From the NCBI RefSeq assembly GCF_027580225.2, contig NC_073342.2, positions 18,860,501 through 18,924,500 of the forward strand: a DNA stretch of 64,000 nucleotides, written 5' to 3'. The translations under genes were made by a program, and so were the position numbers. This stretch comes from Misgurnus anguillicaudatus. Its lineage: Eukaryota; Chordata; Actinopteri; Cypriniformes; Cobitidae. Positions 24,601 to 62,844 of this stretch are shown here, piece after piece (positions within the stretch are counted from its first letter, which is position 1; each line of letters begins with the position of its first letter). The notes under the pieces were generated by a model. The model was not told the origin of the DNA, did not search any database, and was given only the letters and a program-made list of their open reading frames with translations.

Positions 24601-27600
24601 AAAGAAATTAAAACCGGTCGAACCACACCAATCTTTGCACTCCCACAAACGCTCCCAAATATATTTTGATGTTGTGCAAATTAAATTTAAGGAGCATATG
24701 TGACCAAAATGGTCACAATTTCAAGCCCTGTCCAAAGGCTGTGGGAATTGTGATAATGTGGTGTTGTGTATAAAATGATTTTTTGCATTTCAGGTGGGTG
24801 GAGTGGACCCTAAACAGCTGGCTGTTTACGAGGAGTTTGCACGAAACGTTCCAGGCTTCCTGCCTAGTAATGATCTTTCTCAGCCTACTGGATTCCTTGC
24901 TCAACCAATGAAGGTAGTAGACCTTGTTTTTGATTAATTTTGATGATTAAGAATTGGTAATTTTATGGAAAAAAACGTACACACTTTCCGTTTTTGTATT
25001 TCAGCAACAGGCATGGCCGGCCGATGATGTGGCTCACATCTACGACAAGTGCATTTCAGACCTGGAGCAGCACCTTCACGCAATCCCGCCAGCCCTGGCG
25101 ATGAACCCACAGACCCAGGCCATACGCAGCCTACTGGAGGCCGTAGTCATGGCCAGGAACTCTCGTGACGGGATCGCTGCCCTGGCCCTTTTACAGAAGG
25201 TCAGTAAGCATTCGAAAAGCTGTAAAAGTGGAACATTGCACCCAATCAGTGGTTATATTTAGCAAATCCCTCTCTGCATAGGCTGTGGAGGGTCTCCTGG
25301 ATGCCACAAGCGGTGCTGATACTGATCTGTTGCTAAGCTACAGAGAGTGCCACTTGATGGTGCTAAAAGCCTTACAGGACGGTCGCGCATACGGCCCACA
25401 ATGGTGCAACAAACAAATCACCAGGTCAGTATCACCAAAATTTTTGTTTACCACAAGCATCGACTGGTTTCTGAGGATCTAACGTGTTATTCTGCGGCAC
25501 TTGTAGGTGCCTGATTGAGTGCAGGGATGAATACAAATACAACGTCGAAGCTGTGGAGCTGCTCATTCGAAATCACCTTGTCAACATGCAGCAGTATGAT
25601 ATACATCTGGCTCAGTCCATGGAGAACGGGCTTAACTACATGGCCGTAGCGTTTGCGATGCAGCTGGTGAAACTCCTGCTGGTCGATGAGCGCAGCGGGA
25701 GCCACATCACCGAAGCCGATCTCTTCCAGACTATTGAGACGCTCATGAGGACCAGCGCCCACTCCAGAGCCAATGCACCTGAAGGGTAAGACAACTCTAC
25801 TCTATGCTCATGGAACATGCAAAATGTATACCTCACTTTGGATACAAGCATCATGCAAATACTTTGGTTACTGAAGGTTAACTTGATGTTTTGCATGTAG
25901 TTTGCCCCAGCTGATGGATGTTGTCCGTTCCAACTATGAGGCCATGATCGATCGTCACCACGGTGGGCCCAACTTCATGATGCACTCTGGGATTTCCCAA
26001 GCTTCGGAGTATGACGACCCACCGGGCCTCAGAGAAAAGGCAGAGTATTTGCTAAGAGAATGGGTCAACCTGTACCACTCGGCAGCTGCTGGGAGGGACA
26101 GCACGAAGGCCTTTTCTGCATTCGTTGGCCAGGTTAGCTTATTTAAGTTTATTTGGTTTGTGCCCAATAAAGCGTGCCACACAAGCCCTGAAAAGTGAAG
26201 CCAAAACGTCTCGATTTCCCCCAGTGACTGGTCCCAGTATAGGTCATAAACCCCGCCTCCCCATGTTATTTAATGGGACCAACTAAACAATTCAATTACA
26301 CTTCAATTATATTTTTTCCAAAGCTGGTTTCTGTCATTTATTGTAGTTTTTATCACGCTGATGTAAATTCAAGTGTTTGTTTTTAAAATAAGTTTGTTTT
26401 TAGTATTAAAACGGTGGTGTCACATAATGATTGACAGCTGGGATATGCACATTCTGCGAATGTGGGGTCTTGCTTTAGCGGCTTTACTTCCTGCTTGCTA
26501 CTGCGCAGGACTGGTCCCGAAATCGCTACTGCGCAGACTTAAGACCCAAGATGTCAGCACCGTATCTAGGGCCCAATAAAATCCGTTTTATTTTTTCCCA
26601 AATTCCGTTTTATTTTTCCCCAAATTCCGTTTTAATTTCAGCAAATTCCGTTTTATCCGTTTTAATTTTTGGAAATTATATTTTTTACCCTTTACTTTTA
26701 TTTTAGTCATAAAAAGAGAGTGCCTTTAATGTTAATGATTAAAATGTAAATGATTTGGGGGAAAAACTGGATAACAGAATTACTTAATGACTATAAAAGA
26801 TGCATTTACACACGCACATACACACGCACACGCGCACACAACTCAATTCAATGCATTGTTTTTTAGTGTTGTTGCAGGAGGCTACAACAAGGTGTCAAAG
26901 CAGTGGTGCCTTAAACACGTCAATCCAGCGGATCGCGATCCATATTTTATACACAATCGCTTGAAATGCATATAACTTTACAAACATACACAGGATAGTG
27001 GTCTGACTTAGGACAGCATGAGCACGCAGCTCATTGCACGTGCGAGCGAAAGAGAGACAGAGAGCGGCGCCATGATGCAGATGATTATATTTTAAATGCG
27101 AGGGATAGTTAGTTTGCCTCAGCTCGCTTGAAATGCATAAAACTGAACAAATACATGAGGATTTGTGTTCGGACTTCGGACAGATGCGTGAGCGCGGGCA
27201 AGTGAGAGGTACAGTGATGATCACAGACATGGATGAGAGAGTGCATGTATCTTTGCGCTCACCGTGAACAGAGTGTTGACTAACCTTCCAAAATAACAGT
27301 TCTCCGGTCACATAAAAGTCATGTGAGACCTGCTCGGAACTAAGTGCTTAGCGTCAAATTTCTTAATTTTTTCGCTGACGAAAGCAGAGTCGTGGAGAGC
27401 CGCTTCACCATGGTTTCAGTGTTTTGGAGGGGTCTGAAACGACGGGAGGGGGCGTGTCGCCCAGATTTACTTCCCCCGGTCTGCATTTCCCCAAGACATA
27501 CGTTCGTCTCCCACACAAAAACATAATTTTATTCAAAATATGTAAAATTCCGCAAAATTCCGCGTTAATACTAGATTCCGTGTTAATAAGTCAATTACGC

Positions 27601-30023
27601 GATTCCGTCCGCGATTCCGTGATCGCGGAAATTATAGGGCCCTACATATCGGGACACTGACGGCTTCACTTTTCACCAATTAAAGAGAGAACGGGCGTCG
27701 TCCATTTTTTTTACAGTCTATGTGTCCAATTGACTGCAATTCCTTCATCCTGTCATTCATTTACATGCCCTGTTTTCACAGATGCATCAGCAGGGCATCC
27801 TAAAGACCGACGACCTCATCACTCGCTTTTTCCGGCTCTGCACCGAGATGTGCGTTGAGATCAGTTACCGGGCTCAAGCCGAACAGCAGCACCCCACCAC
27901 CAGCCCCGCCATCATCAGGGCCAAGTGTTACCACAACCTGGACGCCTTCGTTCGGCTCATCGCACTACTGGTGAAACACTCCGGAGAGGCCACCAACACG
28001 GTCACCAAAATCAACCTGCTCAACAAGGTCAGACCTTTGAAAAGTAGTTCTTACATCACTTTTCTGTGGAGGACTTTAACAAGCATATATGTTGTTATTG
28101 GGTAGGTTCTGGGCATTGTGGTTGGCGTGCTGATTCAGGATCATGACGTGAGGCAGACGGAGTTCCAGCAGCTTCCTTACCACCGAATCTTCATCATGCT
28201 TCTGTTGGAGCTCAATGCACCAGAGCATGTGCTGGAAACCATCAACTTCCAAACCCTCACTGCCTTCTGGTGAGCACGCAGATTTAGTCTTTAATTACTA
28301 TTGCACAGCTATAACCGTGTACTAAATAGTGTTTTTTTACAGTAACACCTTCCACATCCTGAGGCCAACTAAAGCACCTGGGTTTGTATATGCCTGGTTG
28401 GAGCTGATTTCTCATCGCATCTTCATTGCCAGGATGCTAGCACACACCCCACAACAAAAGGTGTGTTTGTTGTATTATATATATTTATATGCAAGCATAA
28501 AGTGTAACTTCACATGCCATAAACCAACCACTGACCACTTGTGCTCTTTTTTTTTTATGTTAGGGTTGGCCCATGTATGCACAGCTGCTGATTGATTTGT
28601 TCAAGTATCTTGCACCCTTCCTAAGGAATGTTGAACTCAACAAACCTATGCAAATTCTCTATAAGGTATTGGCGCATTGATTTTCCATCAAGCATGTAAT
28701 GTTTTGCCATTTTTTCCAGCTAATGTTTTCGTTCTCGTCTTCAAGGGAACGCTACGCGTGCTGCTCGTCTTGCTTCATGACTTCCCAGAATTCCTGTGTG
28801 ACTATCACTATGGCTTCTGTGACGTCATCCCACCCAACTGCATCCAGCTGAGAAACCTGATCCTGAGTGCCTTTCCCCGCAATATGAGGCTTCCAGACCC
28901 CTTCACCCCGAATCTGAAGGTATAATCAAACATTTTGGATGTTTGAACAGGACTGACTTGATATCATACCTGCAGTTTTACTGTAGATTGATCTTTGTGT
29001 TTTCACTAGGTGGATATGTTAAGCGAGATCAACATCGCTCCCCGCATACTCACCAACTTCACCGGTGTGATGCCATCCCAGTTCAAAAAGGATCTTGACT
29101 CTTACCTAAAGACCCGATCACCTGTCACTTTCCTTTCTGAGCTGCGCAGCAACCTGCAGGTTGGGGGCGCCACTCATATTGCACTAATACTAATATTGCT
29201 AATTGGTTACCGTTTTGGCAATATAAAATTGCTAATTATGTTCTATCTCAGGTGTCCAACGAACCAGGCAACCGCTACAACATCCAGCTGATCAATGCGT
29301 TGGTGTTGTATGTGGGCACCCAGGCCATCGCCCACATCCACAACAAGGGCAGCACTCCCTCCATGAGCACCATTACTCACTCGGCACACATGGACATCTT
29401 CCAGAACCTCGCAGTCGACCTGGATACAGAGGGTAAAACCACTTTACATTTAGCCTTTGAGCACATTTTGGCAAAACAAGAGCCTTATTGGTTGTAACCT
29501 TGTTTTTTCCAGGCCGCTATCTGTTCTTAAATGCGATAGCCAATCAGCTGCGTTACCCGAACAGCCACACACACTACTTCAGCTGTACCATGCTGTATCT
29601 GTTTGCGGAGGCCAATGCTGAAGCCATTCAAGAGCAGATCACCAGGTACGACCGACCACTTCCGACTTTTGCCCTTACTTCATGTCTGTACAATGAAAGT
29701 GTCTAATGCAATTCAATATTACGCAGGGTCCTTCTGGAGAGGCTGATCGTGAACCGGCCGCACCCGTGGGGTCTGCTCATCACCTTTATTGAGCTGATCA
29801 AAAATCCTGCCTTTAAGTTCTGGAGCCACGATTTTGTGCACTGTGCCCCTGAAATCGAGAAGTAGGAGTCCTCATCATCGTTTCGCACGTTTACGCCGAT
29901 ACATCTGCAAGTTTAGTAATGCCAATCTTACTTTAACTCCTCAGATTGTTCCAGTCGGTGGCTCAGTGCTGCATGGGACAGAAACAAGCCCAGCAGGTGA
30001 TGGAGGGAACAGGTGCTAGTTAG
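9663..30023 (+). CDS. cnot1: CCR4-NOT transcription complex subunit 1 (scaffold)
   Basis: Complete coding span of CNOT1, the roughly 2,370-residue scaffold that holds the CCR4-NOT deadenylase together for mRNA decay and translational repression. It starts [20 protein letters not shown] in exon 2 (9462-9764) and ends [10 protein letters not shown], then TAG at 30021-30023. Forty-seven coding exons can be traced by near-identity to vertebrate CNOT1 plus GT-AG borders. Domain order: N-terminal HEAT region, tristetraprolin-binding HEAT domain, MIF4G domain (CNOT7/8), CNOT9-binding domain and NOT1 superfamily domain (CNOT2/3). Most junctions are normal. Exceptions: the acceptor before exon 3 reads CAT instead of CAG, and the junctions of exons 28-30 (20456-21075) are abnormal, which would break the frame if taken literally. 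The gene is essential in other vertebrates, so assembly error or unusual splicing must be weighed against decay. Confidence 0.93.
10367..12335. mobile_element. hAT-like non-autonomous element (TAGGGCTGCAAC ends)
   Basis: Begins TAGGGCTGCAACAATGTATC and ends with the inverse ATTGTTAGTTGCAGCCCTA. These ends are typical of fish hAT-type elements. The flanks no longer show a clean 8-bp duplication, so it is old. It lies in cnot1 intron 4 and carries a nested element at 10851-11376. The 102-codon frame at 10445 inside it has no recognisable similarity. Confidence 0.65.
10851..11376. mobile_element. Mariner-like MITE nested in the hAT-like element
   Basis: Ends TACCGTATTTTTTGGACTAT and GTATAAGCCGC-type inverse ...CTTATACTCCGGAAAATACCGTA. 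The palindromic ends with TA-type flanks suggest Tc1/mariner mobilisation. Insertion inside 10367-12335 shows it is younger than its host element. Confidence 0.65.
15850..16609. mobile_element. PIF/Harbinger-like MITE
   Basis: Ends TGCCGCGTTTCCAT and ATGGAAAAGTGGCA are imperfect inverted repeats, flanked by TTA at 15847-15849 and 16610-16612. A 3-bp TTA duplication is characteristic of Harbinger elements. Subterminal blocks (ACGGTTTGGTTTGGGTCAG and CTGACCCAAACCAAACCGT-like) are also inverted. Located in cnot1 intron 18. Confidence 0.75.
17733..18135. mobile_element. Fragment of a TTAA-type element (AGGGCACCTACTATG end)
   Basis: Starts TTTAAAGGGCACCTACTATGCC, an end shared with 42290-42488 and, inverted, with 31425-31748 and 57478-57809. 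The opposite end is not clear; the right border is approximate. Lies in cnot1 intron 21. Confidence 0.45.
19731..20428. mobile_element. hAT-like element with GGTTCCCAC ends, carrying a nested insert
   Basis: Left end AGGTTCCCACGGGTCCTTAA and right end TAAGGTGTGGGAACCCTGAA are inverted; GTCCTTGAAATTT-like blocks repeat near the right end. It carries another element at 20029-20304. It lies directly upstream of the abnormal cnot1 exon 28, so its insertion could be linked to the damage there. Confidence 0.55.
20029..20304. mobile_element. Small inverted-repeat element (GGTTACGTATATAAC ends)
   Basis: Left GGTTACGTATATAACTGTTG with GAGAAGGGAACAAGACGC; right GAGTTCCCTCAAAAGGGAAC and AATGTAACC. Arms are imperfectly inverted. 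Nested in 19731-20428. Confidence 0.5.
22313..23459. mobile_element. Non-autonomous hAT transposon with perfect 8-bp duplication
   Basis: Ends TAGGGGTGTAACGGTA and TACCGTTACACCCCTA are inverted repeats. The 8-bp sequence GGTAGCAC flanks the element exactly at 22305-22312 and 23460-23467, the hAT signature. No transposase domain is visible in the 1,147 bp. Located in cnot1 intron 33. Confidence 0.9.
23503..23655 (+). repeat. tRNA-derived SINE
   Basis: An A-box-like TGGTGTAGTGG (about 23512) is followed by a B-box GAGTTCGATTCC (about 23567), then a CT-rich body and a tail. This is the internal RNA polymerase III promoter of a tRNA-derived SINE. The 3' border is approximate. Confidence 0.6.
24105..24313. 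mobile_element. TTAA-type MITE (AGGCGGAGTCCATGATGTTT family, copy 1)
   Basis: Ends AGGCGGAGTCCA and TGGACTCCGCCT are perfect inverted repeats, flanked by TTAA at 24101-24104 and 24314-24317. Nearly identical to 41430-41645 apart from a short internal deletion. In cnot1 intron 33. Confidence 0.85.
24794..30023 (+). other. cnot1: cnot1 exon map, exons 34-48 (NOT1 superfamily domain)
   Basis: Exons read: 24794-24913, 25005-25199, 25282-25424, 25507-25785, 25901-26132, 27782-28027, 28106-28269, 28343-28460, 28564-28665, 28746-28919, 29010-29159, 29252-29432, 29513-29645, 29727-29861, 29945-30023. All borders are GT-AG and phases agree. The last seven or so exons encode the C-terminal NOT1 domain that docks CNOT2/CNOT3 (for example [18 protein letters not shown]). 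Confidence 0.88.
26567..27644. mobile_element. Inverted-repeat DNA element with TAGGGCCC ends
   Basis: Starts TAGGGCCCAATAAAATCCG and ends GGAAATTATAGGGCCCTA. Subterminal AATTCCGTTTTA motifs repeat on the left, and CGCGATTCCGT motifs on the right. The flanks do not give a clean duplication. The 138-codon minus frame within it has no recognisable domain. In cnot1 intron 38. Confidence 0.5.
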
Positions 30024-40304: not shown

Positions 40305-41367
40305 ACAGACATCCTGTATGGTCTATGTGCTCGAGTCACTCAAAAAACAGGGGTGAAGTCTGGTTCTCCTGCGTCCTCCGGCCAGATGAACTCAAACCAG
40401 AGAGACCAAAAATAAGAAGCACCCTATCCAACCAGATCCTCCCCAAGACATTTGCGGGGATCTGGACAGATATGTATTATTTTACATTATTCATGTGCCT
40501 TTAAAGAATTTACAAGGTAAACGTATACATAAATTCACCATGACAGCAGAATGAAGCTTATCTTACAATGCTAAACAGAAACAATGTTATCTTACAAACA
40601 GAAAAGGCATAAATGTGTCAGGCTTGTCATACTGGTACTGATCATTCAGAAAGTTGACTGGATTAAGCTCATGAGGCAACCACTTCCACTTGTCCTTCTC
40701 ATACAGCACAGAGGAGACGTTGGGAATGATGAGCGTTCCCCGTGAGAAAGAAGTCAGAAAAAAACACTTTTTAAACATAAACCACTGTAGATTTGTATTG
40801 TATACTGCAGGAATTTTCAAACTTTTCTGTCAGACGAACCCCCTTGACCTAAATTATTTACTTAAAGGGGACATTTGAAGATTTAGTGTGTTGTGATTCG
40901 ACAGCAGCTTAGCTTGGCGTTAGCTTAGCTGGCGACTGCCGTAGCGTTCCTGTGGGCGGAGTTTAGTCAAAAAAACTGTTCTAGTGACGTCATTAAAGCA
41001 GGAAGTAGAGGGCTGTTGTCCAAACCGGCCGTTCGCTTTATGCTTTGAAAGGCGAATTCTGTTAAAGAAAGTATATCGCCTGGCAGTGAACTTTGAGCTT
41101 TATCATTTTACAGGTATTATTTATGCTATTATAGCAACATTACACACCGACTAGGGTTTTAAAAATGGGTTCAGGAAGAAGGTGACCTTTAAACTCACTC
41201 TTTTAAAATCAGGCATGGGATTTTCCAGATTAAACTGTAGCAGGGTTGCCAAATATCGGGAGGGGTTGTGGCCTAGATGGGAAGTTTTTGGGGCTGCAGG
41301 TTTTGATGAGAAAGAAGAAGAAGAAGAGAGAAAAGCTTATCCAAAGCAGAATCACATCGGCCAACAT
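40305..41367 (-). pseudogene. CYP2-family P450 relic (exons 1, 8 and 9 only)
   Basis: Minus-strand remains of a cytochrome P450. Exon 1 (about 41367-41240) reads MLADVILLWISFSL... then SPKNFPSRPQPLPIFGN, the signal-anchor and proline-rich hinge. Exon 8 (about 40742-40600) reads TLIIPNVSSVLYEKDKWKW and ELNPVNFLNDQYQYDKP. Exon 9 (about 40470-40310) keeps PRKCLGE, WPEDAGEPDFTPVF and RPYRMSVKLKE, but has two in-frame stops. Exons 2-7, with the oxygen-binding I-helix and ExxR motif, are missing; a dispersed repeat starting near 40866 fills part of the gap. It differs from the three neighbouring copies, so it may be an older branch of the same family. Confidence 0.8.
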
Positions 41368-42009: not shown

Positions 42010-45000
42010 TCATTTGCCAGGTTCTCTGAGTATGATGTGCATTCGGTAGGGTTTGGGTGTTTGTGTTACTCCAAACACAGGGGTGTAATCTGGTTCCCCT
42101 GCATCTTCTGGCCACACAAACTGAAATTGACGCAGCAGAGTGACCATGACCAGGAAGAGCTCCATACGAGCAAGACCCTCACCAAGACAAACACGGGGTC
42201 CTGTAAACAACATACTGTAAATACTGATGACAAAACAGAATGAAACAAGCACAAAAGATGTAAAACTTAGAACAAATACTTTCAAGTAAAGGGCACCTGT
42301 TATGCAAAATCCACTTTTACAAGGTGTTTGGACATAAATATTATTATATTATATATTTTTGCTCTCCACCCAAACAGAGGCGTTTTGAACATGAAGTTAA
42401 TGATCTGTGAGGTATATATATTTGCGCTGAAATTTTATCATTTTATATACACTATTACGTCTTGTAAAAATGGCCATAATGGTGCCCTTTAAACCAAAGA
42501 AATGATACAAAGTTTAAAATTGCTTCGGTTTCATTTGCTATTGAGATAATTGGTTTAAAATTTGTATTGTAAAATGCAACAAGTGTTCACAAACCTTTCA
42601 ATGTATTTCAGTATTACCTGCAGAAAATGGCATAAAGGCTTCAGGTTTCTCAAACTGGCCCTCATCATTCAGGAAGTTTGCTGGATTAAACTCATGAGGA
42701 AACTTCCACTGACCTTCTTCATTAAGTACAGAAGTAAGATTAGGAATAACAAGAGTTCCCTGGAAAAGATTAAGTGAAGTAAATTATGATTTTGAAAAGC
42801 TCAGGTTTAATTTACATGTCAATGTTAATGCCAAGCTCTCCAGTAAAGCTTCTTCCCTTTGGGAAGTTGTAACCCATCAGCTCTGTGTCTTTGGTGGTGC
42901 TATGAAGCGCACTTGGTACGGTGTTTGCCACACGCTGAACTTCATGAATCACAGCCTGTGTGTACGGCATATTGTGTCTGTCTTCATACGACGCCTGATC
43001 TTTACCTTCCAGAACTTCATCAATCTCTCGCTGACATCTCACTGGAGAAAAAACTAAGTCATAATTGACTGTGTTTGAGCTAAAGAAGATTCAGTGTTTT
43101 GTTGAAATACAGACCCTGAACATCAGGGTAATTCATGAGGTAGAGAAATGCAGCAAGAAGGGTGTTGGAGGTGGTGTCAGTCCCTGCAAAGTGTAAATCC
43201 ATAATTTGCATGATGAGCTCGGCTTCAGAAAACGTGGAAGTCTCGTTTTCTTTCTGTGGAACATGAGATGTTGTTCACAAACTTTGGCACAAAAACATTG
43301 GGCCCATAAGAGATATGCTCATTTAAAATCAATATTCATAAACACAAACTCATATGGTATATATGAGAAAAGTCCAAGTAAAATCCAAAATGTAACACAC
43401 ACCTTATCAAGCTCATCCAGATAGCAGTCAATGAAGTCTCTCGGCTCTCCTGGGACTCTCGTCTTCTTGTGCTCATTGATCAGTTTCATAGTCATTTCTT
43501 TGATCTTTTCTGCATTATCAAAAGCTTTCTTAAAAGGTAGAGGCAAGTTTCTCAATAAAGGAAAGGCTTCATATACCTGTAAAAATCAAATTTTTGTACA
43601 TTCTGTAATCATTTACACTTTTGCATGTCGTTTCAATCCTGTTTGACTTAATGCATGGAAAATAAAAGACAATATTGTGATTACAGCATATTTAAGTCAA
43701 TATTGTATCTTACCACGTTCCAGGGTCCACTGATAATCTTTGAGTTTTCTGTAATAAGTTGAACGTAGCTTGTAAGAAATTCATCGCTGTAGTCATAGCG
43801 GGATCCAAACAGAACCAAACTGATAACATTTGATGCAGCATTGTGAAACAAGGTCTGAGGATTCACAGCTCCTCCTGTATGATTTAACATTGAAAGCATC
43901 ACAATTTACTAAGTTTATTTATTTGACTTAGTGGGAAAAACAGCAATTGAATGGATAGTTCACACAAAAATTTTAATTCTGTCATAAGTTACTCCTCATC
44001 TACTGAACCTGTATGAGTTTCTCTCCCTGTTTAATACATAAGATATTTTGACGAATTAAGGTATCCATTGACTTCCATAGTGTTTGTTTTTCCTACTATG
44101 GAAGCCAATGAGTATTGTCAATTGTTGAGGTTGCCATCATTTATCTTCTTTTGTATTCTACAGAAGAGAGAAAGTCAACATGACGACTAAATAATGACAG
44201 CATTTTAATTTTGGGGAATTAAAAGAATAGTAAAGGAATGTGTTTGGCAGGACAAAGAAAGTTATATACACAGATGGTTGAGTAAAATATGGGTTAATTA
44301 ACTATTTCTTTAATAAATAATTTTTTTGCAAAGACTAACCAGCATTTTTTTCCAAATAAGCAACAATATGTGATATCTCTCCCAGAATCCTCTCCTCCAT
44401 TGTTTGCCTCCCCAAACCAAAGTTTCTCAGGGTCATGAGAGCAAAGCGTCGATGTTCCTTCCAACCAGGGCCATAGTCGGCCATAAGAATACCTTTTAAA
44501 AAAAAAAAAACAGTGATGTTGGTTATGACTATAAGGACTTTTCTTTTTGTGTCTGCTACAGCCTCTGTAGCAGGCCAACGTAGTACATGTAAGATTTTCA
44601 ATCAGCCACACATCTCAATTATATTCACAACAGGTTTTTCTCTGACACGTTGATTTAATATTAAGTAATGTTAGCTTAAAGGGATACTCCAGCAAAATAT
44701 CAAATAATTATCCCATGATTTTCTTACCCTTAAAGAGTCACACAGATCCAAAATCGCAGTGTGTCATGTAGCTGCCCATCAATGTAAACAATGTGCAAAG
44801 TAGTTGAACCAAAAAGTTCACGATTAATAAAGTTATTGGCTTCTAAAGTAGGGGTCGACTCTGAATCGCTGAAACGAGTTGTCATATGGATTGAATCTCC
44901 TGCCTGTCTTTTATCTACGTAATACAAACACTTTGCATAATAATCTCCGCCTACAGCCTTGTCTGGGAGAAACGAAAACTCTTACCTAGCTAGTTAGTGT

Positions 45001-47795: not shown

Positions 47796-49424
47796 CAGTA
47801 TTGTTCAAAATAATAGCAGTACAATGTGACTAACCAGAATAATCAATGTTTTTAGTATATTTTTTTTTATTGCTACATGGCAAACAAGTTACCAGTAGGT
47901 TCAGTAGATTCTCAGAAAACAAATGAGACCCAGCATTCATGATATGCACGCTCTTAAGGCTGTGCAATTGGGCAATTAGTTGAATTAGTTGAAAGGGGTG
48001 TGTTCAAAAAAATAGCAGTGTGGCATTCAATCACTGAGGTCATCAATTTTGTGAAGAAACAGGTGTGAATCAGGTGGCCCCTATTTAAGGATGAAGCCAA
48101 CACTTGTTGAACATGCATTTGAAAGCTGAGGAAAATGGGTCATTCAAGACATTGTTCAGAAGAACAGCGTACTTTGATTAAAAAGTTGATTGGAGAGGGG
48201 AAAACCTATAAAGAGGTGCAAAAAATGATAGGCTGTTCAGCTAAAATTATCTCCAATGCCTTAAAATGGAGAGCAAAACCAGAGAGACGTGTAAGAAAAC
48301 GGAAGACAACCATCAAAATGGATAGAAGAATAACCAGAATGGCAAAGGCTCAGCCAATGATCACCTCCAGGATGATCAAAGACAGTCTGGAGTTACCTGT
48401 AAGTACTGTGACAGTTAGAAGACGTCTGTGTGAAGCTAATCTATTTTCAAGAATCCCCCGCAAAGTCCCTCTGTTAAAAAAAGGCATGTGCAGAAGAGGT
48501 TACAATTTGTCAAAGAACACATCAACTGGCCTAAAGAGAAATGGAGGAACATTTTGTGGACTGATGAGAGTAAAATTGTTCTTTTTGGGTCCAAGGGCCA
48601 CAGGCAGTTTGTGAGACGACCCCCAAACTCTGAATTCAAGCCACAGTACACAGTGAAGACAGTGAAGCATGGAGGTGCAAGCATCATGATATGGGCATGT
48701 TTCTCCTACTATGGTGTTGGGCCTATTTATCGCATACCAGGATCATGGATCAGTTTGCATATGTTAAAATACTTGAAGAGGTCATGTTGCCCTATGCTGA
48801 AGAGGACATGCCCTTGAAATGGTTGTTTCAACAAGATAATGACCCAAAACACACTAGTAAACGGGCAAAGTCTTGGTTCCAAACCAACAAAATTAATGTT
48901 ATGGAGTGGCCAGCCCAATCTCCAGACCTTAATCCAATTGAGAACTTGTGGGGTGATATCAAAAATGCTGTTTCTGAAGCAAAACCAAGAAATGTGAATG
49001 AATTGTGGAATGTTGTTAAAGAATCATGGAGTGGAATAACAGCTGAGAGGTGCCACAAGTTGGTTGACTCCATGCCACACAGATGTCAAGCAGTTTTAAA
49101 AAACTGTGGTCATACAACTAAATATTAGTTTAGTGATTCACAGGATTGCTAAATCCCAGAAAAAAAAATGTTTGTACAAAATAGTTTTGAGTTTGTGCAG
49201 TCAAAGGTAGACACTGCTATTTTTTTGAACACACCCCTTTCAACTAATTGCCCAATTGCACAGCCTTAAGAGCGTGCATATCATGAATGCTGGGTCTTGT
49301 TTGTTTTCTGAGAATCTACTGAACCTACTGGTAACTTGTTTGCCACGTAGCAATAAAAAATATACTAAAAACCTTGATTATTCTGGTTAGTCACATTGTA
49401 CTGCAATTATTTTGAACAATACTG
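47796..49424 (+). mobile_element. Tc1-like transposon, near full length, IR/DR type
   Basis: Flanked by TA at 47794-47795 and 49425-49426. The inverted repeats are long, about 210-225 bp (to about 48021 on the left and from about 49212 on the right). Each repeat holds two copies of a TTCAAAATAATAGCAGT-like motif, one at the outer tip and one at the inner edge, the IR/DR layout known from Sleeping Beauty-type transposons, where both are transposase-binding sites. The arms still match closely, implying modest age. It carries the broken transposase at 48135-49128. It lies between P450 copies A and B. Confidence 0.9.
48135..49128 (+). pseudogene. Tc1-like transposase, broken by two frameshifts
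   Basis: DD34E transposase of about 330 residues. N-terminal helix-turn-helix (EEQRTLIKKLIGEGKTYKEV), AT-hook-like RVRKRK linker, second DNA-binding region (ITSRMIKDSLELPVSTVTVR), then the catalytic residues: Asp in WTDESK, Asp in FQQDNDPKHTS, and Glu in DLNPIENLW, with 34 residues between the last two. The frame shifts twice: in the A-run at about 48476-48484 and near 48735-48745. The rest is open to the natural stop, so it is inactive but recently so. Confidence 0.9.
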
Positions 49425-49730: not shown

Positions 49731-52700
49731 TTATTTGCCAGGTTCTCTGAGTCTGATGTGCATTCTGTAGGGTTTGGGTGTTTGTGTTACTCCAAACACA
49801 GGGGTGTAATCTGGTTCCCCGGCATCTTCAGGCCAAACAAACTGGAATCGACGCAGCAGAGTGACGATGATCAGGAAAAGCTCCATACGAGCAAGACCCT
49901 CACCAAGACACACACGGGGTCCGGTAAACAACATACTGTAAATACTGATGACAGAACAGAATGAAACAAGGTAAACAATGAAAATATTAATTATCCTACA
50001 TATTTCTGAACAGTTACCGGTAGAAAATGGCATGAAGGCTTCAGGTTTCTCAAATTGGCCCTCATCATTCAGGAAGTTGGCTGGATTAAACTCATGCGGA
50101 AACTTCCACTGACCTTCTTCATTCAGTACAGAAGTAAGATTAGGAATAACAAGAGTTCCCTAAAAGAGTAAAGGAGAAAAAAAGAAAATTATTAACAATT
50201 ATTAAATATGAAAAGCTCAAGTTTATATTGAGGTTTTCTAACCTTTGGGATGTTGTAACCCATCAGCTCTGTGTCTTTGGTGGTGCAGTGAAACACACTC
50301 AGTGGTACGGTGTGTGCCACACGCTGAACTTCATGAATCACAGCATGTGTGTACGGCATATTGTGTCTGTCTTCATACGACGCCTGATCTTTACCTTCCA
50401 GAACTTCATCAATCTCTTGCTGACATCTCGCTGGAGGAAAAACAAAGACATGATGATGTGTGTTTAAGCTTAAAGTGCCCATATTATGAAAAACTCACTT
50501 TTTCTGGGTTTTAGGGGAAAAAAATCATCCATTCTGTTTTGAGTGAGATACAGGTTTCTGAATGTCCTCTGCCTTGAATCTCAGATTACACGGTTTCAAA
50601 CTCAGCTCCGAAGTGACGTAACTAGCCGTTTTGTCACATTCAGTTTGAATTTCCCCGCCCACCACCCCACTCGCAGGCCTCCACCCACCAGGTAGCTAGA
50701 GAACACAGAGAGCAGTCACTTCGCTGATACCCTCTGTGCTGTCATCATTTCTCACGGAAATAACAGCGCTATTTGGATATTATGGATTACTCCCGCCTAC
50801 TTTTAAAAACAAAGTTTTAACGCGTGGTTATTGGAACCTGGAGTAATCTTATATACAGTGTGTTACGACGCAAATAGTCATCAGGTTGTAGGCGATAAGA
50901 CGTTCATGCGAAATCTGATGTAAACAACAGACTATGTATCTATATTTCACGGATTATATGCATTTGTGGACAAAAATGGTCATTGGATGTATTTTATTGG
51001 ACTTTCATGGATCATTCACACATCTGAAACAGACTGGATTCGATTCGCGATCGTTGTATCAACACAAAAGGTAAGAAGTCGCGTTATATTTTGCATGTTG
51101 TCATCTTCTGTCACAAAATACTACATTTATGATGCTAGAGCATCTGTATCTCAAAACAGAGATCATACATTGATGCTAATCCCGTAAATTATACCTTTTA
51201 AATGTATAGTGATGTTAAAATTGTTTGTAAAATTGTTTTGCAGTAACGTTAGGCTATATAGATATTTTTATAATAATAATAATAATAATATTATATAAAA
51301 TAATAACACAGTATGGTCTGTACTGCTCACGATATCACTATGCATGCGCACATGACGTTAGTAGTGGGGCGTGATCAAAGGAGCAGCAGCTCATAAATAT
51401 GTAATGACTAGCTCAAAACGGCACAATCTGAACTGCCCTGAAACAGGGGCTCCTTGGATGGGTAACAATCTTTTCCTACAAGCTATTTCGAGCAAACAAC
51501 TTTTGAAACATGCTTTATGGAACTCATACACCTATTTAACTTGTGGAAAAGCAGTCATAAGATGGGTACTTTAATAATTTGAGCAAAATGAATCAAACTC
51601 AGTGTGTTTGTAAAATACAAACCCTGAACTTCGGGGTGATTCATGAGGTAGAGAAATGCAGTGAGGAGGGTATTAGATGTTGTATCAGTCCCTGCAAAGT
51701 GCAAGTCCAAAATGTACATGATGAGCCGAGATTCATCAAAGGTGGAGCCATCATTACTTCTCTAGAAACATCAGATATTATGAAGATTTATTAGTGAGGT
51801 TTAAATTGTTTGAGTCATGCAAATTTTTAGACTATAACACACAAACTCAAACCTTATCAAGCTCATCCAGATAGCAGTCAATGAAGTCTCTCGGCTCTCC
51901 TGGGACTCTTGTCTTCTTGTGCTTGTTGATCAAAGTCAAAGTCATATTTTTTATCTCTTCTACGACTTTAAAACCTTTTCTAAACGGTAGGGGTATGCAT
52001 CTCAATGCAGGAACTGTGTCGTATATCATGTTTAAAATGGAAATATTTGACATTTTCATATACAATAGAATTTCCATTTCTTAATTTAACAAATGCTTTC
52101 ATTTAATTATTCTACAATGACAACATCTCAAATAATCTGTGGCATCATTTCCCAAATACGAATATCAATCATTGCTATTTGTATTAATTCAGCAAATATG
52201 GTTTATGTAAACACTGTTTTTGAAACAGATGTTTTTTGGGATCCAGTATCTCTCTCACCATGTTCCATGGTCCATTGATGATCTTTGAAATAGCTGTACT
52301 GAGTTGAACGTAGCGTGTGAGAAATTCATCACTGTAGTCAAAGCGCGATCCAAACAGAACCAAACTGATAACATTTGATGCAGCGTTGTGGAACCAGGTC
52401 TGAGGACTCACCGTTCTTCCTGTACAATGTAACAATTTTGAAACCTTTTGTCAGCAAGTTCCAATAAAAGATATGAAAATATTAAAATATTTTTTTTGTA
52501 TTTAAATGAATACCAGCATTTTCTTCCAAACAAGCAACTATATGTGAGATTTCTCCCAGAATCCTCTCTTCCATTGTTTGCTTCCCCAGACCAAAGTTTC
52601 TCAGGGTCATGAGAGCAAAGCGTCGATGTTCCTTCCAGCCAGGGCCATAGTCGGCAAAAATAACACCTTTGTTAAAATTGTAAGGTAAGTTTTGAGCTTT

Positions 52701-53764
52701 TGTGAATTTTAAACCTATTATGACCTTATAATCACTCAGAATTACATTCACTTTTATGCTTCTTAGCAAAACTTAAGAACATTAAAGAGATTTGGAATTC
52801 AGTGTGAACTGACAACTTTATAAATCTTAAGAAATTACTTAAAATTTTGACCATTATTTTAAAGTGAAAATCATTGTAACTTATTAGTAATTACTCAGGA
52901 CTTAAGACAGAAGTCTCAATAAATTATTTAAAATGTTGACAATTTTCGGTCTTTTTAAATATGTCTTAGTTAATGTATTGTTCACTAGGATTTATTCGAA
53001 ATGTAATAGTAAATAATGACTATTAAATAAGTAATAAGTAACTAATTGCTACTTAACCCAAACATTAAAATGCAATTACCTACTGATAAGTTAATCGCTC
53101 TTCTTTATTAGTTACCAGTAGTGATAACAGTGTTAATGCAGCACCAACCTTTGTTCTGCATTACTTTATGTGTAACTACCTATTAAGTATGGAGCATTAT
53201 TTTGAGTTCAACTAATGAAAAATGGGGGCAAAAACAAGTGTTGCTTTTGGTCAGTGTAAATGATTGATGCTGTAATTCCTTTTACTTACCTTTATTCTCT
53301 GTAATATGATTGATCATAAAGTCCTGAGGCCGTCCTGAAAAGTCTACAGCTTTAGTAAGCAGAGCTTCCTTCATAACCTCAAAACCATTAAGAACCACTG
53401 CTGGTTTTGATCCCCAAAACAGGCCATAAAGCTTCCCATAGCGTTCTGCAAACTAAAAATATTGCACAAAAAAGATTTTGATTTAAAATGACAAGAAATA
53501 ATTCCAAAGTTATGTAAATCACAGTTTTTTTTTAAATTAAATATATATAAAAAAAAACTTTATAAATAGAGAACAAAACTTATACAATACTCTTTTAAAA
53601 TCTTTCAAAGGATTGGCAATGTCCAGATGAAGTAGATTTCCAAATACTGGAAGAGGTTGAGGTCCAGGGGGAAAGTTCTTGGGCTTTCGGATCCGAATGA
53701 AAAGGAATAAGAGGAATATGCATATCCACGCAACAACCAAAGTACCCAGCATGCTGACTGACAA
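49731..53764 (-). CDS. CYP2-family cytochrome P450, copy B (probably compromised)
   Basis: Second tandem copy. Exons in transcript order: 53752 (or 53764)-53591, 53452-53290, 52666-52514, 52419-52259, about 52030-51853, 51761-51623, 50430-50243, 50159-50018, about 49921-49731. Lengths match copies A and C, and no stop is seen in any exon. Conserved: anchor MLGTLVVAWICIFLLFLF, hinge KPKNFPPGP, I-helix AGTDTT, EVQR, FSTG/PRVCLGEG. Two acceptors are lost. Before exon 5 the sequence is AAACATG|ATATAC, where copy C has GACAG|ATATAT. Before exon 9 it is TTTACCG|GACC, where copy A has TTTACAG|GACC. Retaining intron 8 (93 nt) keeps the frame but puts 31 residues into the haem loop. A functional product is doubtful. 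Confidence 0.75.
50474..51570. mobile_element. TTAA-type element in P450 copy B
   Basis: Ends AGTGCCCATATTATGAAAAA and ATAAGATGGGTACT are imperfect inverted repeats, flanked by TTAA at 50470-50473 and 51571-51574. A short (TAA)n microsatellite lies near 51270. In intron 6. Confidence 0.75.
52667..53289 (-). other. Intron 2 of P450 copy B
   Basis: AT-rich intron sequence. No repeat with two ends and no coding frame seen. Confidence 0.5.
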
Positions 53765-57477: not shown

Positions 57478-57809
57478 ATTATCATAATTTCTCCTGCTTT
57501 GACTCACAGCCTGTAAGTTAACTCCTTTTAGAAACCGAATCTTTCAAACATGGTAAGAAGTGTCACATTTCCGGCTAAAGTCAGAGGTATTCAAACCAAT
57601 CACAACATACAGATTAGTTGGCCAATCAGGGACACAGAGGTTTTAAAATCCGTGCGTTTCAGGAAGAGAGTGAAATCTGGAGCTACAAAAATGTACGGTA
57701 TGTGAAAAATAATGTGTTTTTTGAACCATAAACCACACAAACACATTATATTATACCAAATACACAAAATAACCCAGTTTTTTTAGCAATGAAATAGGTG
57801 CTCTTTAAC
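57478..57809. repeat. Dispersed repeat shared with 31425-31748
   Basis: Same order of blocks as the copy at 31425-31748 (TCTTTCAAACATGGTA, TTGGCCAATCAGGGACACAG, AAAATGTACGGTATGTG, ACCAAATACACAAAATAAC), ending TAGGTGCTCTTTAA. It ends about 180 bases from the 3' end of P450 copy C. Confidence 0.7.
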
Positions 57810-60075
57810 ACCCAACTGTACTTAGCCCTAGTGTGACAACAAGATCCACAAAAGATTAATGTGTGTTACTGTAAATAAACTAGTTTCTCAATCCAGTAAT
57901 ATTGAAAATGTACAGAGTCAAGTACATACTCTTTTATAAAATATGATATAACTGCATCTTAAACATTGTATGCACAGACACCTAACATCATTATTTGACC
58001 GGTTCTCTGAGTCTGATGTGCATTCTGTAGGGTTTGGGTGTGAGCGTGACTCCAAACACAGGGGTGTAATCTGGTTCCCCGGCATCTTCAGGCCAAACAA
58101 ACTGGAATTGACGCAGCAGAGTGACAATGACCAGGAAGAGCTCCATACGAGCAAGACCCTCACCAAGACAAACACGTGGCCCTTAAACAACATGTATATA
58201 TGTCATTATCAAGCAAGCATAAACATAGACACATGTGACTTCATGTTATATATGTTTAGTTACCTGTCGAGAAGGGAATAAAGGCTTCAGGTTTTTCAAA
58301 GTGGCCCTCATCATTGAGAAAATTGGCTGGATTAAACTCATGAGGAAACTTCCACTGACCTTCTTCTTTTAGTACAGATGCAAGATTAGGAATAACTACT
58401 GTTCCCTTTGGGATGTTGTAACCCATCAGCTCTGTGTCTTTGGTGGTGCAGTGAAACACACTCAGTGGTACGGTGTTTGCCACACGCTGAACTTCATGAA
58501 TCACAGCCTGTGTGTAAGACATATTGTGTCTGTCTTCATACGACGCCTGATCTTTACCTTCCAGAACTTCATCAATCTCTTGCTGACATCTCGCTGGAGG
58601 ACATGATGATGCATGTTTAAGCTTCATGCATAAAACAACATAATCACAAATTCAGTGTGTTTTTGAAATACAGACCCTGAACATCAGGGTGATTCATGAG
58701 GTAGAGAAATGCAGTGAGGAGGGTGTTGGATGTTGTATCAGTCCCTGCAAAGTGCAAGTCCAAAATGTACATGATAAGCTGGGCTTCAGAAAACGATGAA
58801 CCATAATCTCCTCTCTAAAAACATAAAATATCATTCAGTTTAATATTATACAACATTCTGTATATTAAAAGTACAGTAGGATCAAAAACCACCTTATCAA
58901 GCTCATCCAGGTAGCAGTCAATGAAGTCTCTAGGCTCTTCTGGGACTCTCGTCCTCTTGTGCTCTTCGATCAGTTTAAAAGTCATATGTTTAATCTTCAA
59001 TGCATTATCAAAGGCTTTTTTAAATGGTAAAGGCAAGCATTTCAATAAAGGAAATGTGTCATATATCTGTCAAAGAAGCACATGACATTTTCATGCATGG
59101 AAAGAACTGTTATTATATAGTATGGAATGATTGTCATGGACATTCTGCTATGAAAATAAATGTTTGTGTGTTGCATTTTTCATGTCTCTCTCACCAGGTT
59201 CCATGGTCCATTTATGATCTTTGAAATCTCTGTACTAAGCTGAACATAGCGTGTGAGAAATTCATCAGTGTAATCGAAACGGGATCCAAACAGAACCAAA
59301 CTAATAACATTTGATGCGGCGTTGTGAAACATGGTCTGAGGATTTACCATTCCTCCTATTAATTTAAAAACATTACATTTTATATATACATATACAATTA
59401 TTAAATAAATTTCTTGCAAATTCTTATAACTACCAGCATTTTTTTCCAAACATGCAACTATATGTGAGATTTCTCCCAGAATCCTCTCTTCCATTGTTTG
59501 CTTCCCCAGACCAAAGTTTCTCAGGGTCATGAGAGCAAAGCGTCGATGTTCCTTCCAAGTTGGGCCATAGTCGGCCAAAACAACACCTTTAATAAAACTG
59601 TTAGTTATGAGGATTTGTTTTTTGTAACATACCTCTTTTAATTAGCTTAGACCAGCATAATAGCCATACATATCAATTATACATTCATTTATGTTCAGTT
59701 TTTGTTCAAAGGAACTAAGAAAGCAAATGGCAATAAACATGTAGTACACTACAGTACTATAAATGTTGTCCATACAATATATGCACTATAATCCAAGTAC
59801 AGTTATGTGTAAAAACATATAGTCAAAGAATATCATATGGTATTTTAAAAACATATTAAAACATGACAGAATTTTAATTTTTGGGCAATCTATTTGCTTA
59901 ACTAATGCATTATGCTATAGTTGCCAAATTTATCAAAATCCCTCAACTGCCTGTAAAGTTAATCTATTGAGATTTTTTTGATCTCTTTAGAAATGTGAGA
60001 AATAATAGATAAACTTCACAAGGGGGCTGATTTTATTCATTAAAAAATTTAAATGTTTTAATGACAGTTGTAAAT

Positions 60076-61034: not shown

Positions 61035-61362
61035 AAATGTAGTATGACTTACCTTTATTCTCTGATATATGATTTATCATAAAGTCCTGTGGCCGTCCAG
61101 CAAAGTCTATACCTTTAGTAACCAGAGCTTCCTTTATAACCTCAAAACCATTAAGAACCACAACTGGTTTTAATCCCCAAAACAGTCCATAAACCTTTCC
61201 ATAGCGTTCTGCAAACTGAAAATGTTGGCATAATTACTTTTTAAAGCAGTTAAAGAAAGAAGTTAAATTTTAAAAAAGAACTAAATAAGTATCTACAGTA
61301 AAAAGACAAAAACTGATACAATACTCTTTCAAAAATTTTCAAAGGATTGACAATGTTCAGAT

Positions 61363-62718
61363 TAGGGATGGGCATTTTCCAGTAATTTACTATTCGAATA
61401 TTTAAGCTCATAAAGAACGAATATTCGAATATTCGTTTATTTAAATTATGTTAATTAAGACATGCGTCTTTTGTATTTTTCATTTTGTCATAATTTCACA
61501 GAAGGCTTATAATTAGGAAATATCCACAACAAGCTAAACTTATATTCTGTATGTATATGTATGCATGTATTTTTAAGTTGAAAACATTGTAAATTGTATA
61601 TATATATTTTAAATTCTTCTTAAAAAATATCCTACAGAAAAAAAGGCGTTAAAACCCCATGCAGAGCGAAGTCTGAGTCAGTCAAACCCTTAGTTTCAAG
61701 TCGTCGTTAGTATGTATTCATTACTGTTGGATCTTACATACATTATATTATACCAAATATTATATATTAACCCCAAATCTAAGCGAAGTTTGAGGACTTG
61801 CGAAGTTTAAAGTTTGAAGACTTGACAAAGGCTATCATCATTTAAACCCTTAAACAGACTCCAAATAAGAGCCCGGAGCAAACGAAAAAACGCATCTACA
61901 TAACCGACTGCTCAGTCAACATATAAATATCTTCTCAGTTTAGTTTGACATGTATTTGTGAATAAAGAAACCATCTTTACCCTACCTGCTTCGGTGAAAG
62001 CCCGTTCTTCTGACTAGATACAATAATGCCGGTGCTGCGGAGAAAACTCTTCCTCGTGTTGCACGTGATGATGGTTATCGGATAAAAACAACAGACGGAT
62101 TGAACAAGATTGAATATCTGTATTTAACATTATTTTACAAATAACGTAAGCTGGCTCGATATATTATTGTTGACTGTGCAAAGTTACTAACGTTAGCTTA
62201 ATTTAACAAGATTTCACAAAGACGGAGCTTTGCTTTTAAACAGCCATGTGCAGTTATCCGGTTCATTTGTGAAAGAGCACCGCATATAATACATGTTCTC
62301 CGTTTCATTTCGTTCTCCGTGTATGTCTCGTTATTAACAAAATAAAGTAGACTTTATAACAGAAAGCTTACAAATCTCTCATGATGTGTTGATGCGGGCG
62401 GCGGAGAAGCACGTTTAATAACACGTGAGCCCTCACTGAGCCAGTTGCCAAATATGGCGTGGCGCGGCCAAACCCGGAGATAAAAGAAAAAAACTTAAAT
62501 TCGTCTGCAATCTGCATTGCCAAACAATCAGAAATATATACGAATTAATGTTCATGTATATCTTACATTTAAGTCTGTAAAAGAGTATAGATGAAGTGAA
62601 AAAGCATTAAATAAGGTGGCACAATAAAAACAAACAAACATTCGAATAGCATTTTTTAAATTCGAATTATTATTGCCGATCGAATATTCGAATATTCGAA
62701 TATCCGTGCCCATCCCTA
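61363..62718. mobile_element. Non-autonomous hAT transposon inside P450 copy C exon 1
   Basis: Ends TAGGGATGGGCA and TGCCCATCCCTA are perfect inverted repeats. The 8-bp sequence GTTCAGAT is duplicated exactly at 61355-61362 and 62719-62726. ATTCGAATATTCG motifs are repeated just inside both ends, probable subterminal binding sites. No transposase in 1,356 bp. Confidence 0.95.
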
Positions 62719-62844
62719 GTTCAGATGAAGCAGATTTCCAAATAATGGTACTGGACGAGGTCCAGGAGGAAAGTTCTTGGGCCTCTGGATTCGAAATAGG
62801 AGAAATAAAAGGAAAATCCACACTAGAACTAAAAAGCCCAGCAT

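What the first reader, a model, noticed from the sequence alone, without database searches (positions are those of the whole stretch)
61355..62726. hAT element inserted into coding exon 1 of a P450, supplying the stop codon itself
The element carries an intact 8-bp duplication (GTTCAGAT), and its first three bases on the gene's strand are TAG, in frame right after codon 42. Because both tips read TAGGGATGG outward, and codon position is set by the exon, the tip itself ends the protein. All other exons and splice sites of copy C are clean, so the hit is recent and could be polymorphic.
Basis: seen in the sequence. Interest (0 to 1): 0.75.

Follow-up and report, generated by a model that had tools for sequence, protein, structure and literature searches.

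The report
Jumping gene interrupts a loach P450
A small mobile DNA element has landed inside the first exon of one of several cytochrome P450 genes in what is most likely the oriental weatherloach, and its own first three letters stop the protein; an uninterrupted version of the same protein is on public record, so this looks like an ordinary, recent loss-of-function variant that not every fish carries.

Summary
A 1356-bp element (61363-62718) with perfect 12-bp inverted tips and a perfect 8-bp duplication sits in exon 1 of a minus-strand CYP2X-like P450; TAG follows codon 42 directly. It has hAT anatomy but no recognised transposase, so it is at most a non-autonomous hAT-like element. That the tip itself is the stop is a one-in-three phase accident: in the other phases stops come 16 and 55 codons later.

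New here: with the element left out, the gene encodes 488 residues identical to a public Misgurnus anguillicaudatus protein (P0005). None of the nine intron placements that would give that sequence has GT-AG, GC-AG or AT-AC ends, so ordinary splicing cannot make it from this DNA. An uninterrupted allele, or less likely a near-identical second copy, should exist. This supports 'recent' and 'polymorphic' better than the intact duplication does; the DNA behind P0005 could not be read. Also new: the far tip carries an in-frame ATG. In passing: copy C lost intron 7 exactly, neighbours A and B have splice-site lesions, and a public loach protein joins B to A sequence. A known kind of event; modest interest.

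The parts
61363..62718 (.). non-autonomous hAT-like element, 1356 bp, GC 0.341
   Evidence: boundaries; GC; no Pfam family above its cut-off in 28 of 30 reading frames
61363..61374 (+). tip TAGGGATGGGCA; on the gene strand its complement, with the adjoining bases, holds an in-frame ATG
62707..62718 (-). tip TAGGGATGGGCA entering the gene; its first three bases are the stop codon TAG
61355..61362 (.). target-site duplication copy GTTCAGAT
62719..62726 (.). target-site duplication copy GTTCAGAT
61418..61435 (.). subterminal palindromic block CGAATATTCGAATATTCG
62681..62698 (.). subterminal palindromic block, second copy
62719..62844 (-). copy C exon 1, first part: codons 1-42 (ATG at 62844)
61325..61354 (-). 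copy C exon 1, remainder after the second duplication copy, ending at donor GTATTG
61373..61375 (-). ATG at the inner edge of the far tip, in frame with the rest of exon 1 (MPIPN-LNIVNPLKIFER)
61053..61215 (-). copy C exon 2
59434..59586 (-). copy C exon 3
59195..59355 (-). copy C exon 4
58893..59066 (-). copy C exon 5
58676..58814 (-). copy C exon 6
58264..58593 (-). copy C exons 7 and 8, fused (intron 7 absent)
57991..58181 (-). copy C exon 9 with stop codon

Best explanation
A non-autonomous hAT-like element, moved by a transposase made elsewhere in the genome, inserted recently between codons 42 and 43 of exon 1 of a CYP2X-like P450 gene in Misgurnus anguillicaudatus or a very close relative, copying 8 bp of target. 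The site happens to lie in codon phase 0, so the element's TAG terminus is itself the stop codon and would be in either orientation. The allele should make at most a 42-residue stub (membrane anchor and proline-rich hinge, no haem-binding core), and its message should be subject to nonsense-mediated decay. The insertion is not fixed: uninterrupted copies of the same gene exist. Shown: anatomy, frame, stop, identity to an uninterrupted public protein. Inferred: mobilisation in trans, RNA decay, loss of function, segregation in populations.
For: Exact tips, duplication and phase. The other coding parts are open with GT-AG ends at all 7 introns. 488 of 488 residues identical to loach protein P0005, which matches Pfam p450 at 7.5e-134. 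None of the 9 placements that would give the uninterrupted sequence has GT-AG, GC-AG or AT-AC ends. C looks constrained against its paralogues (dN/dS 0.257 to B, 0.271 to A). The loach genome paper reports DNA transposons among the most abundant repeats (PMC9893644, passage).
Against: The DNA behind P0005 could not be read, so 'allele' versus 'near-identical second copy' is not proven. No reads or second individual were examined; the genome search did not complete. No relative of the element was found outside this copy: in the rest of the window only one 20-bp match, and no exact 22-base tip match in viral or prokaryote contigs, where none is expected. Another loach annotation holds a C-like protein (P0121, 355 of 362 aligned residues identical) that starts at Met126, so a shortened product of such a gene is annotated too. 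At least one weak cryptic splice pair could keep the frame open without residues 8-42 (donor 62821, score -3.3, to an AG whose first exon base is 61406).
Confidence: 0.83

Rival explanations
1. The interrupted C is one of two near-identical tandem copies; P0005 is the other, intact copy, and the insertion may be fixed in the species.
For: The array already holds A, B, C and fragments; the window ends about 1.2 kb upstream of C's start codon, so a further copy would not be seen.
Against: A, B and C differ from each other by dS 0.28-0.36; a copy identical in all 488 residues would have to be very young or freshly converted. In the search with P0005 the only listed proteins above 85% identity were P0005 itself and P0121 (98% over 74% of the query); the list shows the best 120 of 5721, one representative per 90% cluster, so a second near-identical entry could be hidden inside P0005's cluster of 2 members.
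Confidence: 0.08
2. The annotated protein comes from the same interrupted DNA: the element is removed at RNA level at the duplicated 8 bp (non-canonical splicing), or reverse transcription skipped between the two 8-bp repeats, and the annotation software accepted the gap as an intron.
For: An 8-bp direct repeat flanks the element. B's intron 4 is likewise flanked by AACATG repeats with a TG acceptor, yet the exons are joined in P0003, although there an AT-AC placement is possible. The complete identity of P0005 and of B exons 1-8 to the window would fit a source as close as the same assembly.
Against: No placement at the C site has consensus ends. If the annotated DNA shares B's CG acceptor, the same annotation avoided it and used A's exon 9, so it seems to respect consensus.
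Confidence: 0.05
3. The interrupted allele still makes a shortened P450, starting at the ATG in the far tip (MPIPN-LNIVNPLKIFER...), at an internal exon-3 methionine, or through cryptic splicing.
For: The frame is open from 61450 into exon 1 with ATGs at 61411 and 61375, the latter with A at -3. A loach protein starting at the residue equivalent to Met126 is annotated (P0121).
Against: It would lack the membrane anchor and the conserved proline-rich region; no promoter was shown; P0121 starts downstream of these ATGs and differs from C at 7 of 362 residues, so it comes from another haplotype or copy.
Confidence: 0.04

Closest known systems
Tol2 in the medaka tyrosinase gene (hAT element; review PMC8151067, passages seen; Tol1 in tyrosinase exon 1 is recalled only)
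   Same: fish gene knocked out by insertion of a hAT-type element, visible as a variant
   Different: Tol2 is about 4.7 kb and autonomous (recalled); here 1.36 kb with no transposase recognised and no known phenotype
maize Ac/Ds (tips recalled as CAGGGATGAAA/TAGGGATGAAA)
   Same: first eight bases of one Ac tip, TAGGGATG, and the 8-bp duplication (both recalled for Ac)
   Different: relationship not tested beyond that recalled motif
hAT MITEs such as Mar and Vege of Drosophila (PMC3517528, passages)
   Same: AT-rich, no coding capacity, 11-12 bp tips, 8-bp duplications
   Different: Mar (610 bp) and Vege (884 bp) are shorter; Mar uses nnnTAnnn targets (Buster group), while GTTCAGAT has no central TA
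pink bollworm cadherin allele r16 (PMC6521048, abstract and passages)
   Same: a transposon in a coding exon supplies the premature stop
   Different: 1545-bp degenerate, probably non-LTR element, 4-bp duplication, and mis-splicing shown by cDNA
dm-W exon 4 of Xenopus, coding sequence from a hAT-10 element (PMC9250109, abstract)
   Same: vertebrate gene whose reading frame runs into non-coding hAT DNA
   Different: there a new functional coding exon; here a stop

Membership tests
hAT superfamily | 8-bp target-site duplication | tested here: met
   GTTCAGAT twice, 8/8; criterion from PMC3942097 passages
hAT superfamily | short terminal inverted repeats (10-25 bp) | tested here: met
   12/12 bp; criterion
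hAT superfamily | length 2.5-5 kb (complete elements) | tested here: not met
   1356 bp; criterion; expected only of complete, autonomous elements
hAT superfamily | hAT transposase gene | tested here: not met
   28 of the 30 stop-to-stop frames of 30+ aa overlapping 61355-62726 were scanned (the two left out are exon 1 frames): no Pfam family above its cut-off, best sub-threshold E 0.021 to an unrelated domain. So it is filed as hAT-like and non-autonomous, not as a complete hAT transposon
hAT superfamily | mobilised by a hAT transposase | not testable with these tools
   needs an excision assay or an autonomous partner in the genome
hAT, Ac group versus Buster group | target preference nTnnnnAn (recalled) versus nnnTAnnn | tested here: inconclusive
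   GTTCAGAT fits nTnnnnAn and not nnnTAnnn; one site only, 1 in 16 by chance
CYP2X-like cytochrome P450 (copy C) | P450 protein closest to the fish CYP2X subfamily | tested here: inconclusive
   Pfam p450 for P0005; proteins named CYP2X8 (P0023, 77%), CYP2X7 (P0038, 76%), CYP2X6 (P0037, 75%) and CYP2X9 (P0024, 78%) are among the hits to P0005, but other hits, some closer, bear automatic names such as 2F2-like, 2D3-like or 2J6-like, and P0005 itself is called 2D3-like; no phylogeny was made
CYP2 gene structure | nine exons (count recalled for CYP2; seen in A and B) | tested here: not met
   C has eight exons, intron 7 absent
segregating insertion | uninterrupted and interrupted forms at one locus | tested here: inconclusive
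   uninterrupted protein 488/488 identical; its DNA locus not readable here

The most novel reading that the evidence does not exclude
The element acts as a portable 'stop and restart' cassette: one tip ends the reading frame (TAG) and the other supplies an in-frame ATG, so the allele makes a soluble, anchor-less P450 from a start inside the tip.
Probability: 0.03. Interest if true: 0.55.

Novelty: new member of a known kind. Interest (0 to 1): 0.27.

Why it matters
If the allele reading is right it is a clean, PCR-typable presence/absence variant in a P450 gene array of a mud-dwelling fish, and a marker of recent activity of a non-autonomous hAT-like element. Beyond the species it illustrates a simple principle: tips that start with TAG terminate any frame they enter in phase 0, whichever way round the element lands.

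Tried and rejected
Splicing the element out as an intron: all 9 placements that would give the uninterrupted sequence lack GT-AG, GC-AG or AT-AC ends. Other copies of the element in the window: only a 20-bp match at 57743-57762. RNA families: none at gathering score in the window. Exact 22-base tip pattern in viral and prokaryote contigs: none, as expected for a fish element. Literature, listings seen: no paper holds CYP2X and Misgurnus, none 'hAT' and 'TAGGGATG' as whole words, none all five terms; some searches listed 15, 20 of 42, 1, 1, 11, 20 of 35 and 7 papers, of which I opened six in part. The whole-genome search did not complete.

Full report
What is there. The window's minus strand carries an array of P450 genes. 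Copy C runs from ATG 62844 down to the stop codon in exon 9 (57991). After codon 42 of exon 1 the sequence breaks off exactly at the start of a 1356-bp element (61363-62718) flanked by the perfect 8-bp repeat GTTCAGAT. The element has 12/12-bp inverted tips, the only two exact TAGGGATGGGCA matches in the window, and a palindromic subterminal block CGAATATTCGAATATTCG near each end. Its GC content is 0.341 against 0.384 for the window. 28 of the 30 stop-to-stop frames of 30 aa or more that overlap it were scanned with Pfam and none reached a family cut-off (best sub-threshold E 0.021); the two left out lie in exon 1. By anatomy it is a non-autonomous hAT-like element; membership by transposase is not shown.

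The stop codon. The first three bases of the element on the gene strand are TAG, in frame directly after codon 42. Since both tips start with TAG reading inward, the same would happen in either orientation. Had the break fallen in either of the other two codon phases, translation would have gone 16 or 55 codons on with the element as it lies, or 7 or 14 in the opposite orientation. So the tip-made stop is a one-in-three accident with little consequence: any phase would have ended the protein early. At the far end the frame of the remaining exon 1 is open from 61450, with in-frame ATGs at 61411 and at 61375-61373, the latter reading MPIPN-LNIVNPLKIFER into exon 2. AATAAA lies at 61441 and ATTAAA at 62419 on the gene strand. 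Whether any of these is used is unknown. Cryptic splicing that keeps a frame open while dropping residues 8-42 can be written (donor 62821 with an AG before 61406) but scores weakly on a matrix recalled from memory.

The source and the uninterrupted form. A search with copy B gave Misgurnus anguillicaudatus proteins the highest identities (P0003 99%, P0005 85%). With the two flanks of the element joined, copy C encodes 488 residues, identical in 488 of 488 to P0005, 'cytochrome P450 2D3-like [Misgurnus anguillicaudatus]'. P0003, on a contig of the same listed length, equals copy B in residues 1-427 and copy A in the last 63. The species assignment rests on these identities alone. The interrupted DNA cannot give P0005 by ordinary splicing: the uninterrupted sequence allows nine placements of the 1364-bp gap and none begins and ends as GT-AG, GC-AG or AT-AC. 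So an uninterrupted C coding sequence should exist, in another haplotype or individual (most likely), in a second near-identical copy, or, least likely, as unusually processed RNA. The name shown for P0005 does not mark it as low-quality or partial. Its DNA is not readable with these tools, and the genome search did not answer in seven attempts.

How recent. The intact 8-bp duplication says little. Zero amino-acid differences to P0005 over about 1138 non-synonymous sites (site count) says more: the 95% upper limit is about 3 changes, 0.26%, which at a recalled neutral rate of about 4e-9 per site per year is under roughly 0.7 million years if the interrupted copy evolved freely. This is an order-of-magnitude figure with a rate from memory, and it assumes that P0005 is the allele. 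Another loach protein, P0121, listed from nr only (perhaps an older annotation), is C-like from the equivalent of Met126 on, with 355 of 362 aligned residues identical; it is another haplotype or another copy. No full-length partner of P0121 was listed, but clusters are shown by one representative, so that absence is weak evidence.

State of the gene otherwise. All seven introns of C are GT-AG. Copies A and B are less clean: A's intron-7 donor is GG, B's intron-4 acceptor is TG (within an AACATG repeat that also allows an AT-AC placement) and B's intron-8 acceptor is CG. P0003 has A's rather than B's exon 9; the two differ at 4 of 63 residues, so this is either a B-to-A fusion model or a B haplotype converted by A. 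C has lost intron 7 exactly (97 bp in A, 83 bp in B, 0 in C). dN/dS is 0.257 (C-B), 0.271 (C-A) and 0.38 (B-A), as for genes under constraint for most of their history.

Comparison. hAT elements inactivating fish genes are long known: Tol2 was found through an albino medaka with the element in the tyrosinase gene (PMC8151067, passages). A transposon-supplied stop in a coding exon is known from the pink bollworm cadherin allele r16 (PMC6521048, abstract and passages). Non-coding hAT DNA that became coding sequence is known from dm-W (PMC9250109, abstract). The loach genome paper reports 57.35% repeats with DNA transposons among the most abundant, and expansion of P450 drug-metabolism pathways (PMC9893644, abstract and passages). 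The listings showed no paper on this gene or element; the library holds open-licence papers only.

Verdict. A real, recent, most probably segregating hAT-like knock-out of one member of a P450 array: a new member of a known kind, of modest interest, with a cheap decisive test.

Noticed in passing
58264-58593: Copy C has lost intron 7 exactly: exons 7 and 8 are contiguous, while A and B keep introns of 97 and 83 bp there. A precise single-intron loss in one tandem duplicate could come from recombination with a cDNA or a deletion between AGG repeats at the two splice junctions.
   Followed up: partly
49731-53752 and 42010-42200: Public loach protein P0003 equals copy B exons 1-8 (427 residues) plus copy A exon 9 (63 residues; A and B differ at 4 of these): B's own exon 9 has a CG acceptor in the window. 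A true B-A fusion transcript, an annotation effect, or a B haplotype converted by A.
   Followed up: partly
42856: Copy A intron 7 begins GG instead of GT; A may not splice normally.
   Followed up: no
52027: Copy B intron 4 ends TG; the hexamer AACATG occurs at both junctions so that an AT-AC intron giving the same protein can be written (read).
   Followed up: no
50243-50430 and 58406-58593: B and C exon 7 are 97.9% identical while their exon 8 is 86.6%, and A/B exon 8 is 95.1%: a patchwork suggestive of gene conversion.
   Followed up: no
40590-41336: Further P450-like fragments on the minus strand (translations, recognised by eye), apparently remnants of another copy.
   Followed up: no
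48123-49128: Overlapping plus-strand frames that look like a Tc1-type transposase (recognised by eye, not searched), between copies A and B.
   Followed up: no
14117-28105: Plus-strand frames at 14117-14503 and 27734-28105 that look like CNOT1 exons (recognised by eye from the translations, not searched).
   Followed up: no
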